DNA of 52,038 nucleotides from Chthonomonadales bacterium. GTDB lineage: Bacteria > Armatimonadota > Chthonomonadetes > Chthonomonadales > CAJBBX01. The notes beneath the pieces were generated by a model that did no database searches, was not told the origin of the DNA, and was given only the letters and a program-made list of their open reading frames with translations. This document shows, in pieces, positions 1-43,851 of the stretch (its first letter is position 1; each line of letters starts with the position of its first letter). The stretch is from the NCBI GenBank assembly GCA_020849275.1, contig JADLGO010000052.1:1-52038 (forward strand). The letters run 5' to 3'. Made by a program: the position numbers and the translations under genes.

Positions 1-73
1 AAGCTTGCCCAAAACCTCCAAACGCCGCTGTTGTCTGACGCTCAATGTGATTGTCCCCATACCCATTAGCATG

Positions 74-125
74 CGGACAAAGTCCCTGAGCAATAACACC
101 GGACATATTCCCTGAGCAGTTACAC
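74..125. repeat. Two tandem 26-bp imperfect repeats, possible IS end
   Basis: Two abutting 26-base units (74-99 and 100-125) share CGGACA, TCCCTGAGCA and ACAC and differ at about five positions. Short tandem direct repeats of this kind are known from the ends of IS21-type elements, where they bind transposase. No transposase lies in the window, so an element would have to extend to the left of base 1, or this is a remnant. The flanking 1-73 is less GC-rich than the rest. Confidence 0.4.
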
Positions 126-222
126 CGACGGCGCGCGCCTCTTGCCAGATAGCGGACGACGTAGTACAATACGCATGGCCCCGCTGCGTCCACAGCTACC
201 CGGAAGGACGGTGACCACCCTC

Positions 223-8835: not shown

Positions 8836-8970
8836 CTACACGGTGAGTCGCTCGCGGCCCTTCAGGCGGCGAGCGCGCAGAACGTTGCGGCCGTCCTTGC
8901 TGCTCATGCGCCTCATGAAGCCGTGCACCCTCTTGTGCCGGCGCTTCTTCGGCTGATAGGTCCGTTTCAC
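8836..8970 (-). CDS. rpmH: 50S ribosomal protein L34
   Basis: This short gene encodes 44 residues, starting [17 protein letters not shown] after the initiator and ending RERLTV, which is a full-length L34 with its typical Lys/Arg density. It begins with GTG, preceded by GGAGGG about 7 bases upstream. It is the first gene of the rpmH-rnpA-yidD-yidC-khpB operon, with a strong promoter about 30 bases upstream. In many bacteria dnaA and the replication origin lie just beyond; here selB does instead. Confidence 0.97.
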
Positions 8971-9000
8971 TCGTGTGCCCTCCGCATCGCTTGGAAGGCT

Positions 9001-9029
9001 ATTATAGCACAATCGAGTCGGCGCAGCAA
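9001..9029 (-). promoter_or_regulatory. Sigma-70-type promoter of the rpmH operon
   Basis: On the minus strand, TTGCTG (9029-9024) is followed after 17 bases by a perfect TATAAT (9006-9001), with an extended -10 (TGC just before). Transcription would start near 8994, giving a leader of about 24 bases before the rpmH GTG. Confidence 0.85.
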
Positions 9030-9299
9030 CGCCGCCGCGAGGGCCGCGCGCCCGCTACTCTCGGGGCGTCGGCGACGCGACTGCCGGCAGCTCAGGCGGC
9101 GCGTCCGATGGCCTCGGGCTGGCGGAAGGATGGCTGGGGGGACGAGGAGCGCTCTGCTGGCGCCGCTCACGGAGCGGCCCGCCGTGGCCCCGGGCGCTCC
9201 CGAGCGGCCGGGGCCACGATGCCGACTGTGATACCACGGATCGTGCTCGACACATCGGGCACTGGCGCCGGTCCGCCGCACGGTCCGCCACACAGGCGC

Positions 9300-9328
9300 T
9301 TGACATCGCCTGTGGGCTACCGTACAAT
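9300..9328 (+). promoter_or_regulatory. Near-consensus sigma-70 promoter with no downstream gene
   Basis: A perfect TTGACA (9300-9305), a 17-base spacer and TACAAT (9323-9328) form one of the best promoters in the window. It points rightwards toward the 3' end of the opposing selB gene, with start near 9335. No plus-strand protein gene follows, so it may drive a non-coding RNA or an antisense transcript. Confidence 0.65.
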
Positions 9329-9535
9329 GCGTGTGTGACGCACCTTACTTCAGCCGCACCCATGCCCGGACGTCGGCGCGCCGCAAGGCCCGAATCGGCG
9401 CCTGGCGCGGCCGCGGCGGACCTGCTGGCCCGCCGCCGGTGAGGTCGCGCGCGGGTCGGAGGGCGCCCCTCGGTGCGGGGTCTGCCCTGATCGAGCTGCG
9501 GGGTGTTCGGTGGCGCCGCTTGCGCGGCGTTCGTG

Positions 9536-9563
9536 GGCCCGCCGGCTATCCAGCCGGCGGGCC
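9536..9563. terminator. Perfect 11-bp hairpin, terminator candidate
   Basis: GGCCCGCCGGC pairs perfectly with GCCGGCGGGCC around the loop TATCCA. On the plus strand it is followed by TTGTCTGT, a weak U-tract, and would end an RNA from the promoter at 9300-9328. On the minus strand it lies about 80 bases after the selB stop and may instead end selB transcription. Confidence 0.55.
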
Positions 9564-9644
9564 TTGTCTGTGGTGGCTCCGCGGCGGATCGCGCTCCTGG
9601 TCGGGCCGTTCGGGCATCGTAGCGGCCGCCGATCGCGGCAGCGA

Positions 9645-11537
9645 TCAGCCACCATCCGCCAGCAGACGCACATCGCCGCGGCGGCGCGTGAAGCGCACCG
9701 AGTCGAAGTACTCGAGCAGCGGAACCGCGTACTTGCGCGAGGTGCCCGTCACGTCTCGGAAGCGGCCCACCGCGACCACGCCATCCTCGGCGGCGATCGA
9801 CGTGAGGGCCTGGCGCGCCGCCTCCACGGCGTCGGCGTGGAACGCCATCTCCTCGGTGACGCGCACCACGACTCCACGCTCCGCCCCCACGCGCAGGATC
9901 GCCGCGACCGCGTCGGGCGGCGCGCCGACGCCCTGGCTCAATTCCGCCAGGCTCGGCGCCGCCAGCCACGCGGAGCGCAGGGCCGCCGCCACGCGCTCAA
10001 GCAGCGAGCGCTGGCGCGGGTTGAGCTCCACCGTGAACCCGGCGAGACGCACCGTCACGCCCTCCGACACCACGCTGCCCTCGTTCTGCCACCGACGCAG
10101 CAGTGGCGCGAAGGCGCGCGGCTCGAGCGGCCTGCCGAGCGCGGAGCGGAGCTCCTCCTTCGGCATGCCGCGCCGCAGCGGGTTCGCCGCGTGGTAGGCC
10201 GCCAGAGCCCCGCGTGCGCGCTCCGTGACCAGCAGCAGGGCAGCGGGGTGGATGATCCGGTTGCCGCCGAGAGCCTGGACGCCCTCGGCCTCAAGCAGGC
10301 GCGGCACGTCCTCCGCGGCGATGCCAGCGCTCGCCGCGGCCACCTCCAGCTCCGCCCCGAAGGGCTGACCCTGCAACCACACCGTGGCTACCTCGATCGC
10401 GTCGCCGCGCGCCCGCGCCGCGAGGGCCTCCACCACACCCGCATCGCTCCTCCGATGGCGCGCGGGGTGGGCATCGAGAACGACGCCGCCCCCGATCAGC
10501 GCCATGGGTGAGTAGACCCGCATCACGAAGCGATCCCCCCGGACACACGCCATCGGGGTCTCCGCGCGAAACTGCACCCACCCATGCTCGCCCGGGCCAA
10601 TGCGGGCGCCGCCAAGCACGCGAACGCGCCCCAAAACCTCGGCGGCGCCCAGGTAGAGCCGCACGCGCTCGCGGTCGGCGAGCGGCCGAGCGGCCTCTTG
10701 GAGCACGCGCGCTTCGGCATCGAACGCACTCGTCGGCACGATGTAGCCGGGCGGCGCCAGCAGCGCGCCGCGCGCCACATCGTCGGGCTCCACGCCGGCG
10801 AGGTTCGCCGCGACCCTCGTGCCCGCCGACACGCTCGCCGCGCGCGACCCGTGGCTCTGCAGCCCTCGCACCCTGGCCGGCAGGCGGGCGGGCAGCACCT
10901 CGATCGGGTCCTCGGTCGTGATCGTTCCCGCGATGAGCGTGCCGGTGACGACCGTTCCGAACCCGGGCCGCGTGAACACGCGGTCGATCGGCAGCCGGAA
11001 CGGAACGCGGGCATCGCGGGGCTCGGCACGCGAGACGGCGGAGAAGAGCACGCGCTTGAGGGCGGCGATTCCGGTGCCCTTCAGCGAGTCAACGCGGACG
11101 ATGCGAGCGGAACGCAGGAACGTGGCGGCCAGTTGCGCCCGCACGTCCTCCTCCACCACCTGCAGCCAGTCGCGGTCCACGAGGGCCACCTTCGTGAGCG
11201 CGACGACGCCCTCTCTGGCGCCGAGCAACTCCAGGATTCGCACGTGCTCCAGGGTTTGCGGCATCACGCTCTCGTCGGCGGCGACCACGAGCAGGACGAC
11301 GTCGGCGCCGCCGGCGCCGGCGAGCATGTTCTTGAGGAACCGCTCGTGCCCCGGCACGTCCACGATCCCTGCCACGCTGCCGTCGGGGAGGGTGAGCGCG
11401 GCGAAGCCCAGGTCGATGGTCATGCCGCGCGCCTGCTCCTCCGTCAGCCGGTCCGTGTTGGTGCCGGTGAGAGCCTGGATCAGCGTCGTCTTGCCGTGGT
11501 CGACATGGCCGGCGGTCGCGATGACGACGTGCTTCAT
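9645..11537 (-). CDS. selB: Selenocysteine-specific elongation factor SelB
   Basis: The 630-aa GTPase delivers Sec-tRNA(Sec) to the ribosome at UGA codons followed by a SECIS element. It has G1 GHVDHGKT (10-17), G3 DVPGHE (60-65), EF-Tu-like domains 2 and 3, and C-terminal winged-helix repeats ending in GTSRKYAVPLLEYFD...TRRRGDVR, the SECIS-binding WH4 pattern. Length matches the family. The G4 motif reads TKVALVD (115-121), so the guanine-specifying Asp of TKxD is Ala. It lies 26 bases after the ribokinase gene. selA, selC and selD are not in the window, nor did I see a gene interrupted by an in-frame UGA. Confidence 0.95.
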   Translation of the reverse strand: MKHVVIATAGHVDHGKTTLIQALTGTNTDRLTEEQARGMTIDLGFAALTLPDGSVAGIVDVPGHERFLKNMLAGAGGADVVLLVVAADESVMPQTLEHVRILELLGAREGVVALTKVALVDRDWLQVVEEDVRAQLAATFLRSARIVRVDSLKGTGIAALKRVLFSAVSRAEPRDARVPFRLPIDRVFTRPGFGTVVTGTLIAGTITTEDPIEVLPARLPARVRGLQSHGSRAASVSAGTRVAANLAGVEPDDVARGALLAPPGYIVPTSAFDAEARVLQEAARPLADRERVRLYLGAAEVLGRVRVLGGARIGPGEHGWVQFRAETPMACVRGDRFVMRVYSPMALIGGGVVLDAHPARHRRSDAGVVEALAARARGDAIEVATVWLQGQPFGAELEVAAASAGIAAEDVPRLLEAEGVQALGGNRIIHPAALLLVTERARGALAAYHAANPLRRGMPKEELRSALGRPLEPRAFAPLLRRWQNEGSVVSEGVTVRLAGFTVELNPRQRSLLERVAAALRSAWLAAPSLAELSQGVGAPPDAVAAILRVGAERGVVVRVTEEMAFHADAVEAARQALTSIAAEDGVVAVGRFRDVTGTSRKYAVPLLEYFDSVRFTRRRGDVRLLADGG

Positions 11538-24006: not shown

Positions 24007-24855
24007 ATGAGGCTTACGAAGCCGGGAGCCGAGGTCTACGCGCCCGATGGAGCCGCCGCGGGAGCAGCGCTCGCCCGTACGACCCATATGGCCATCGGCG
24101 CCCACCAGGACGACCTGGAGATCATGGCGCTCGAAGGCATCCTTGCCGGTTTCGGCCGACCGGACCACTGGTTCTCGGGGGTCGTGGTGACCGATGGCGC
24201 GGGAAGCGCACGCGACGACCTCTACGCCGCGTACACCGACGAGCAGATGCGGGCCGTCCGACGCGTTGAGCAGAAGAAGGCTGCCTTCGTGGGTGAGTAC
24301 GGCAGCGCCGTGTTCCTCGACTTCACCAGCGCCGAGGTGAAGGACCCCGCCCGCATGGAGCCGGTTGAGGACATCCGGGCGCTCGTCGAGGAGGCGCGAC
24401 CGGGGGTCGTCTACACCCACAACCTGGCGGACAAGCACCCCACCCACGTCAGCACGGCGCTGCGCGTCGTGCGTGCGCTGCGCGAGTTGCCGGCCCGAAG
24501 CCGTCCCCAGCGCGTCGTCGGCTGCGAGGTGTGGCGCGACCTGGACTGGCTCGTGGACGAGGACAAGGTCGTCTTTCGCCTCGACAAGCACGAGAACATC
24601 GCGGTGGCGCTGGTGAGCGTGTTCGACTCGCAGGTGGTGGGCGGCAAGCGGTACGACCTGGCGACCCTCGGCCGCCGCCGGGCGCACGCCACCTACCACG
24701 AGAGCCACGCCATCGACGTCTCGCAGATGGTCAACTTCGGCATGGACCTCACGCCGCTCGTGATGGACCCCGGGCTCTCCGTCGAGGAGTACGTCATGGG
24801 CTATGTCGACCGGTTCGCCGCCAGCGTGCGCGACCTGCTGGCTCGGCACGGCTGA
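24007..24855 (+). CDS. PIG-L family deacetylase (LmbE-like)
   Basis: The 282-aa zinc enzyme of the LmbE/PIG-L/MshB family removes acetyl groups from N-acetylglucosamine-type sugars. The N-terminal AHQDD motif supplies metal ligands (H-x-D-D, about residue 35) and the THNLADKHPTH segment a second histidine and acid. ATG 24007 is preceded by AAAGGAG. It lies downstream of the ROK-like gene and faces the ROK kinase gene; together they suggest handling of an amino-sugar conjugate. The specific substrate is not predictable. Confidence 0.88.
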   Translation: MRLTKPGAEVYAPDGAAAGAALARTTHMAIGAHQDDLEIMALEGILAGFGRPDHWFSGVVVTDGAGSARDDLYAAYTDEQMRAVRRVEQKKAAFVGEYGSAVFLDFTSAEVKDPARMEPVEDIRALVEEARPGVVYTHNLADKHPTHVSTALRVVRALRELPARSRPQRVVGCEVWRDLDWLVDEDKVVFRLDKHENIAVALVSVFDSQVVGGKRYDLATLGRRRAHATYHESHAIDVSQMVNFGMDLTPLVMDPGLSVEEYVMGYVDRFAASVRDLLARHG

Positions 24856-24882
24856 GCGCGGGCCGGGCGAGCGGCCCGCGCT
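24855..24882. terminator. Shared convergent terminator hairpin
   Basis: AGCGCGGGCCG pairs over 11 bases with CGGCCCGCGCT around a six-base loop. The hairpin spans the end of the PIG-L stop and the first bases of the opposing ROK stop, so it serves both convergent genes. There is no U-tract. Confidence 0.6.
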
Positions 24883-41844: not shown

Positions 41845-43851
41845 TCAGCCGACAACCGGCGCGGCGGCGCCGGTTGTCGGCGCTGGTCGTCGCCCGTCGA
41901 GTGGGAACGTCACGGTGACGCGTCCGCCGCCATCCGGCGCGTTCCCGTAGTTCGTGGCGCCAGCGAGGTCCCACCGACTGAGGCGCTCAACGAGTTCCAG
42001 GCCCGTGCTCGCGGCGGCCATCGGCTCGAAGCCGGGCGGGAAGCCTGGCCCGCCGTCGATGACATCGAGGCGCGCCTGGCGGTCGCCGGCGGTTAAGGCG
42101 ACAACGACGCGGCCATCGCCGTGCTTGAGACCGTTCGCGACCAGCTCGTTCACGACCAGGCCGAGTGACGAGCCCTGCCGGCTCGTGAGCCAGACGTCCT
42201 CGACCTCGCCCAACTGAACCTCCTGAGCCCCCGCCGTGTTGCGCAGTACGCCCACCAGACGCGTCAGCACGTCGCGCGCGGAGAGCCCGCGCATGCCCTC
42301 CTCCACGTCCAGGTGCTCGGTGAGCAGGTCATGCACGATCGCGAGCGCGCGAACGTGGCTGCTCAAGCGGTGGATCTCGGCGATGGGTATTGCAGCGCCG
42401 CCGTCCATGATGCGCATGTCGAGCATGGCGGCGATGACCTGCAGGTTGTTCTTCACCCGGTGGTGTGTCTCGCGCATCGCCTCCTGCAGTCGCTCGTTCA
42501 GGAGGGCGATATGCTCCTGGTTGTGCGCGAGGGTTTGCTCGGCGCGCAAGCGGTCGGTGATGTCGGCGGTCACCCCGATGATGCCCACCGGGCGTCCTGC
42601 GTCGTCCAGCACGGGCGTCTCCGTAACGAGCGCTGCGAAGGGCGTTCCGTCGCGGCCAGTCAGCGTGCGCTCCCCGTTCCAGGGCGAGCCGGCGAGGACC
42701 TCATCGCGTACCTTGGCGGCCTCGCCCTCCTGGCCCGGCGCTCCAATGAGCTCGTGCGATTTCCGGCCGAGCGCCTCGTCCCGCTCCCACCCGAACACTC
42801 GCTCGGCACAGCCGTTCCAGTAGGTCACGGTATCGTGCACGTCGGTTGCCACCACGGCCTGACCGATCGCGTCGAGGAGCTGCGCCTGGAACCGGAGCTG
42901 CTCACCGGCACGCTTGAGCGAGCAGAGATGACCGATCATGGCCGCGTAGAGCCAGAGGAGCCGCGGCTGCTCGTCGGCAAGCGGCGCGCCGCTCACCAGG
43001 TTGTCCGCACTGAGGAATCCGGTGACGCGCGCGCCGTCCCACAGAGCGGCCATCGCGTGCCACCCCGTGCCGACCTGGCAGAGCCGGTGGTCGTAGAGCG
43101 GCCCGTCGCGCACGAGCAGGGACGGGTGCCGGCCGGTCAGCACGCGTGCCATCAGCTCGTCGCTTTCGGTGTCGATGCGCGAGGGGCGCTCATCGCGGAT
43201 CTGTCCGGTCTCGTCGACGCCGAAGGAGCCGCGGGCCATGCCGCCGTCCGGCGACCGGAACCAGATGCTCAGGCGGTCGAACCCGAGCCGTTCGCGCCCC
43301 AGCTCGACCGCCCGACGGCAGACGGCGTCGACGCTGACCAGGGTCGATAGCTCGTTGCCGATGGCGAGGAGGGCCGTCAGGCGCTCCTCGAACCGCCGGT
43401 CGACGCTGCGGCTGAGTTGGAGCGCCTGCTCAGCCTGGCGGCGCGCCGCGACGGCGCGCGTGAGCTGCTCGACCTGGCGCGTGAGGAGCACGAACTGGTG
43501 CGCCGACTCCAGGCGCGGCAGAAAGCGCAGCTGGACCACCGCCGACGCGCCCCGTGCGCGAGCGGCCACGAGGGCACCTTCCACGCGGCAGCGGCAGAGC
43601 GTGCCGTCAGCCTCTCGCAGCGAAAGCGTCCCGATGGTCGGCTCGGCCGTTCGCGCGCAAGCGCGCAGGAACGCCGCGAGGTCCTCGGTATGGGCCACGG
43701 CGATGTCGGCGAGCTGGCGTCCGGCGAGGTCAGGGGCGCCCGTGCGTCTGAGGGCCGCCCGGTTGGCGGCGAGGATCGCTCCCCCGGGGGCGGCTAGCAG
43801 CATCGGCTCGGGGAGCGGGTCGGCAAAGCGTCGAAACTCCTCGGTGGGCAA
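41845..43851 (-). CDS. PAS-GAF-PAS histidine kinase, HisKA_2 type
   Basis: The 668-aa kinase has an N-terminal PAS-like domain (about 8-110), a coiled segment, a GAF-like domain (about 175-345), a second PAS with a PAC tail (about 345-470), the HisKA_2 dimerisation helix with HHRVKNNLQ (H463, H464) and an ATPase domain with NELVANGLKHG and DGGPGF. No membrane segments: it is cytoplasmic. The start TTG 43851 has GGAG five bases upstream and follows the MetOD1 stop by two bases, so the two are one unit. No response regulator is adjacent. Confidence 0.85.
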   Translation of the reverse strand: MPTEEFRRFADPLPEPMLLAAPGGAILAANRAALRRTGAPDLAGRQLADIAVAHTEDLAAFLRACARTAEPTIGTLSLREADGTLCRCRVEGALVAARARGASAVVQLRFLPRLESAHQFVLLTRQVEQLTRAVAARRQAEQALQLSRSVDRRFEERLTALLAIGNELSTLVSVDAVCRRAVELGRERLGFDRLSIWFRSPDGGMARGSFGVDETGQIRDERPSRIDTESDELMARVLTGRHPSLLVRDGPLYDHRLCQVGTGWHAMAALWDGARVTGFLSADNLVSGAPLADEQPRLLWLYAAMIGHLCSLKRAGEQLRFQAQLLDAIGQAVVATDVHDTVTYWNGCAERVFGWERDEALGRKSHELIGAPGQEGEAAKVRDEVLAGSPWNGERTLTGRDGTPFAALVTETPVLDDAGRPVGIIGVTADITDRLRAEQTLAHNQEHIALLNERLQEAMRETHHRVKNNLQVIAAMLDMRIMDGGAAIPIAEIHRLSSHVRALAIVHDLLTEHLDVEEGMRGLSARDVLTRLVGVLRNTAGAQEVQLGEVEDVWLTSRQGSSLGLVVNELVANGLKHGDGRVVVALTAGDRQARLDVIDGGPGFPPGFEPMAAASTGLELVERLSRWDLAGATNYGNAPDGGGRVTVTFPLDGRRPAPTTGAAAPVVG
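41848..41881. terminator. 15-bp perfect hairpin at a convergent gene end
   Basis: GCCGACAACCGGCGC pairs without mismatch with GCGCCGGTTGTCGGC around the loop GGCG. It is 42 bases after the stop of oxidoreductase B and lies inside the last codons of the convergent histidine kinase. No U-tract follows on either strand. Confidence 0.6.

What the first reader, a model, noticed from the sequence alone, without database searches (positions are those of the whole stretch)
9300..9563. Orphan transcription unit between rpmH and selB
A TTGACA-17-TACAAT promoter points right into a 230-base region with no protein gene, ending at a perfect 11-bp hairpin. The promoter is among the best in the window. It may be a non-coding RNA, possibly connected with selB expression, or an antisense RNA to the selB 3' end. 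No tRNA-Sec, 6S or SRP RNA signature was seen. The hairpin could alternatively end selB.
Basis: partly seen in the sequence, partly recalled or inferred. Interest (0 to 1): 0.6.

Follow-up and report, generated by a model that had tools for sequence, protein, structure and literature searches.

The report
Orphan promoter, short unconserved non-coding unit
Between two ordinary bacterial genes there is a real-looking promoter that points into about 230 bases of non-coding DNA ending at a strong hairpin; it could make a short RNA, but nothing shows that the RNA is conserved, folded or functional, so it is at most an ordinary unproven small-RNA candidate.

Summary
In 1.11 Mb of this genome 51 sites score 11/12 or better, against about 2 per Mb in simulated non-coding sequence. 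Most sites scoring 10/12 or better directly precede a gene or tRNA, so the promoter is probably genuine. No frame of 9030-9640 looks coding, and no Rfam family or tRNA matches.

The interpretation as a regulatory RNA is not supported. The 200 bases between promoter and hairpin fold no better than shuffled sequence. Nothing similar exists in the 11 other genomes of the family. None of the sampled relatives shows selB beside rpmH, so this is a lineage-specific junction. In relatives a divergent promoter beside rpmH serves a tRNA (two genera) or a small ORF (one genus). The hairpin can end the orphan RNA, selB, or both.

Best reading: an active but orphaned promoter giving a short, fast-evolving, possibly functionless transcript.

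In passing: a transposon whose end opens the window sits 16-17 bp upstream of the -35 box of promoters across this genome.

The parts
9300..9328 (+). sigma70-type promoter TTGACA-17-TACAAT (11/12)
9291..9314 (.). inverted repeat CACAGGCG-N8-CGCCTGTG centred on the -35 box; possible operator, but unique in the genome and no longer than chance repeats in non-coding DNA
9335..9563 (+). putative non-coding transcript of about 230 nt; start inferred about 7 bases after the -10 box
   Evidence: inferred from promoter and hairpin; no coding signal, no Rfam match, no similar sequence in family
9536..9563 (+). perfect 12-bp hairpin, terminator-like, followed by TTGTCTGT on the + strand; may also end selB on the - strand
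   Evidence: z = -5.2 for 9530-9570
9645..11537 (-). selB, convergent neighbour
8836..8973 (-). rpmH, divergent neighbour; its own -10 box TATAAT is near 9000-9006 (- strand)

Best explanation
A genuine sigma70 promoter at 9300-9328 directs a short (about 230 nt) non-coding transcript that ends at the 9536-9563 hairpin. It is an orphan: in related genomes a divergent promoter beside rpmH serves a tRNA or a small gene, and here the unit it once served has probably been lost or rearranged when selB came to lie next to rpmH. The hairpin probably acts in both directions, ending the orphan RNA and the selB mRNA. Promoter and hairpin are shown as sequence patterns; transcription, termination and the history of loss are inferred.
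For: Promoter match far above chance; 59 of 86 such sites in the genome lie within 300 bp of a same-strand gene or tRNA. No coding signal, no RNA family, no folding signal between promoter and hairpin. Divergent promoters beside rpmH in G004 (tRNA-Arg), G002 (tRNA-Pro) and genus g7 (small ORF). selB is not next to rpmH in the sampled relatives. Strong hairpins are 7 times denser in non-coding than coding DNA and densest between convergent genes, mostly without T-runs.
Against: No homology shows that this promoter descends from the relatives' divergent promoters: it lies about 330 bp from rpmH instead of 58-144 bp, and no tRNA remnant was found. No other genome of the same genus is held, so recent conservation cannot be judged. 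Two other apparently orphan promoters (L213:2572, 12/12, antisense to a cupin-like gene; L186:5259, with a hairpin about 150-180 nt on) may mean that short non-coding units are a regular feature here.
Confidence: 0.5

Rival explanations
1. A functional lineage-specific small RNA (trans-acting), with its own promoter and terminator, perhaps controlled through the inverted repeat over the -35 box.
For: Complete anatomy: strong promoter, about 230 nt, hairpin with the better T content on the + strand; perfect 8-bp inverted repeat centred on the -35 box, one of the two longest around the 86 promoters examined.
Against: No folding signal in the body (z = +0.8 for 9335-9535), no relatives, no regulon of the inverted repeat, and repeats of 8 bp or more occur in about 6% of random non-coding stretches.
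Confidence: 0.25
2. Antisense or convergent control of selB: transcription from 9300 reads through the imperfect terminator into the selB 3' end.
For: The promoter points at the selB 3' end, 310 bases from the inferred start, and there is no true T-run after the hairpin.
Against: A 12-bp G+C-rich hairpin stands before selB; the arrangement is confined to this genome.
Confidence: 0.08
3. The promoter-like match is inactive and the hairpin is simply the selB terminator.
For: About 2 chance sites of 11/12 per Mb of non-coding sequence, that is about 0.2 in the 0.12 Mb of non-coding DNA examined; the hairpin lies 82 bases after the selB stop, and hairpins at gene ends are common.
Against: Odds favour a real promoter for a site of 11/12; the T content is on the + side of the hairpin only.
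Confidence: 0.12
4. A small protein is encoded, for example the 26-codon frame 9362-9442.
For: An ATG frame of 26 codons follows the promoter.
Against: No Shine-Dalgarno sequence before the ATG, no codon-position signal in any frame, no similar sequence in relatives.
Confidence: 0.05

Closest known systems
Orphan bacterial intergenic sRNA transcription units (own sigma70 promoter and intrinsic terminator)
   Same: promoter, gene-free stretch of about 230 bases, terminal hairpin
   Different: no conservation, structure, known target or transcript shown
Divergent tRNA unit beside rpmH in relatives G002 (tRNA-Pro TGG) and G004 (tRNA-Arg CCG)
   Same: a strong sigma70 promoter upstream of rpmH, pointing away from it
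   Different: no tRNA here; 327 bp from the rpmH start instead of 58-144 bp; no sequence similarity found

Membership tests
Bacterial intergenic sRNA gene | own promoter | tested here: met
   11/12 match, (pattern only, no transcript)
Bacterial intergenic sRNA gene | intrinsic terminator | tested here: inconclusive
   perfect 12-bp stem; 5 T in 8 but no T-run; the consensus scan found no terminator
Bacterial intergenic sRNA gene | conserved sequence or structure | tested here: not met
   no match in 11 family genomes, no folding signal; no same-genus genome held
Bacterial intergenic sRNA gene | detected transcript | not testable with these tools
   no RNA data
Known Rfam families (6S, SRP, tmRNA, RNase P and others) | covariance model score at or above gathering score | tested here: not met
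   RNase P RNA lies elsewhere, on C26
tRNA or tRNA-Sec | ARAGORN or Rfam match | tested here: not met
   the tRNA-Sec model matches on C11 above its cut-off

The most novel reading that the evidence does not exclude
A genus-specific regulatory RNA of about 230 nt whose promoter is controlled through a palindromic operator over its -35 box.
Probability: 0.15. Interest if true: 0.3.

Novelty: new member of a known kind. Interest (0 to 1): 0.2.

Why it matters
If transcribed, it would be a candidate small RNA in the order Chthonomonadales (Armatimonadota), where my one literature search found none described. By itself it is an ordinary kind of feature. The survey made for it shows that consensus sigma70 promoters can be called reliably in this G+C-rich genome, and it revealed a promoter-targeting transposon.

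Tried and rejected
Known RNA families at gathering score and at E up to 10: only chance matches (best 23.6 bits against a gathering score of 50). tRNA or tRNA-Sec at the locus: none. Origin of replication beside rpmH: no DnaA box in the window with up to one mismatch, and dnaA lies on another contig. Dispersed repeat: DNA matches inside and outside the genome are short G+C-rich chance hits of similar score. Inverted repeat as operator of a regulon: 3 sites with up to 2 mismatches against 4 for the control. Homology with the intergenic region of relatives: none. A search of 84,980 species for selB neighbours gave no relative closer than 62% in SelB.

Full report
Setting. The window is contig C52 (1-52038) of a 4.8 Mb, 73-contig genome. 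The nearest genomes are Armatimonadota, order Chthonomonadales by the titles of the selB hits. The window is 66-74% G+C. rpmH, rnpA, yidC and jag lie to the left on the - strand, selB and a ribokinase-like gene to the right on the - strand.

Observation. The promoter TTGACA-17-TACAAT at 9300-9328 is present, and it is one of the two best in the window. The hairpin at 9536-9563 has a perfect stem of 12 bp and a loop of 4. I surveyed 1.11 Mb of the same genome. It holds 86 sites of at least 10 of 12, of which 47 lie within 300 bp upstream of a same-strand coding gene and 12 upstream of a tRNA; the reversed sequence gives 2. At 11 of 12 or better there are 51 sites, against 1-3 per Mb in simulated non-coding sequence. 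The gene calls were my own, by codon-position G+C, so the classes are approximate; several sites classed as converging or inside genes turned out on reading to precede real genes. An 11/12 site in non-coding DNA is therefore very likely a real promoter, though activity is not shown.

Content of the unit. No reading frame between rpmH and selB shows the codon-position G+C bias of real genes. No tRNA, tmRNA or Rfam family is present. The stretch 9335-9535 folds no better than dinucleotide shuffles (z = +0.8); only the terminal hairpin is exceptional (z = -5.2). The whole 9335-9570 stretch has z about -1.2.

Conservation. The interval has no match in the 11 other genomes of the family, and matches further out are short G+C-rich chance hits. 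In the relatives sampled, rpmH and selB lie on different contigs or far apart, and several genomes of the family show no selB at E 1e-40. The gap is thus a junction special to this lineage as far as sampled.

What relatives have instead. In G004 a promoter TTGACA-18-TATAAC 58 bp from the rpmH start precedes a tRNA-Arg (CCG). In G002 TTGACT-18-TATAAT at 144 bp precedes a tRNA-Pro (TGG). In three genomes of genus g7 TTGACA-17-TAGCAT at 67 bp precedes a small ORF. A divergent promoter beside rpmH is thus frequent in the family, and what it serves varies. In this genome tRNA-Pro (TGG) and tRNA-Arg (CCG) lie elsewhere. That the orphan promoter is what remains of such a unit is a plausible inference, not shown.

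The hairpin. Perfect stems of 10 bp or more are 7 times denser in non-coding than in coding DNA, and densest between convergent genes, as expected for terminators; most have no T-run. The hairpin at 9536-9563 fits that pattern. Its tail on the + strand has 5 T in 8, among the best of the survey, and on the - strand none. It may serve both the orphan unit and selB.

The inverted repeat. CACAGGCG-N8-CGCCTGTG (9291-9314) is centred on the -35 box. It is unique in the genome. Repeats of 8 bp or more occur in about 6% of random non-coding stretches, and in 2 of 86 promoter regions. It is a weak hint of an operator only.

Verdict. Observation confirmed; a transcription unit is likely; a regulatory function, or a link with selB, is unsupported.

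In passing: a promoter-targeting transposon. Window positions 1-124 are the end of an element present about 28 times in this genome, mostly at contig ends. In nearly all right ends that are close copies and could be read (20 or more; listed), the element is followed by 16-17 bases and then the -35 box of a promoter scoring 9-12 of 12. The one exception, L258, was read at a wrong place by the script; the start of that contig (L185) shows ATTGACA about 17 bases after the element. A diverged copy (L267) shows the same arrangement. Left ends begin TGTTCCTGCTCAGCGATAATGTCC; four of them (L269, L274, L279, L291) are preceded by exactly the 17 bases that follow the matching right end, so the target duplication of about 17 bp abuts the -35 box. 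By eye L266 pairs with L255 in the same way with 16 bases. Ends of the form TGT...ACA with repeated terminal motifs recall the IS21 and IS481 families (from memory, not tested); the transposase gene was not found, probably because the interior is collapsed in the assembly. Three literature searches found no described element of this behaviour, which is weak evidence. This deserves its own study.

Noticed in passing
window 1-141 with promoter at 142-170; copies in L241-L269, left ends in L266, L269, L274, L279, L291: End of a multi-copy transposon (about 28 copies). In nearly all readable close copies it lies 16-17 bp upstream of the TTGACA box of a good sigma70 promoter, and the target duplication (17 bp in four left/right pairs) abuts the -35 box: an element that targets promoters with base precision. 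Transposase not found.
   Followed up: partly
L225 1-140, L229 1-130, L281 and L285 ends: A second repeated sequence at contig ends, with terminal motifs ..GTGAGGCAACG, also lies just upstream of a TTGACG box in L225; in L242 the same motif stands between the first element and TTGACA, so both may use the same kind of target.
   Followed up: no
L186 5259 to about 5060 (- strand): Another apparently orphan promoter (TTGACT-17-GATAAT) followed about 150-180 bases on by a perfect 13-bp hairpin, between convergent genes; no Rfam match.
   Followed up: no
L213 2572-2600 (+): Perfect consensus promoter TTGACA-17-TATAAT pointing into the 3' end of an oppositely oriented gene that looks like a cupin protein; possible antisense RNA.
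   Followed up: no
L189 1-185; L290 end: CRISPR-like array: repeat GTTTCAATCCTCACCGGCCCCGAAGGGCCGGTGCA with spacers at contig ends.
   Followed up: no
window 9183-9218: Second strong G+C-rich inverted repeat in the same intergenic gap, left of the promoter (self match of 36 bases at 89%).
   Followed up: no
window 24855-24882 and 41848-41881: Long perfect hairpins at or near gene 3' ends without T-runs, typical of this genome.
   Followed up: partly
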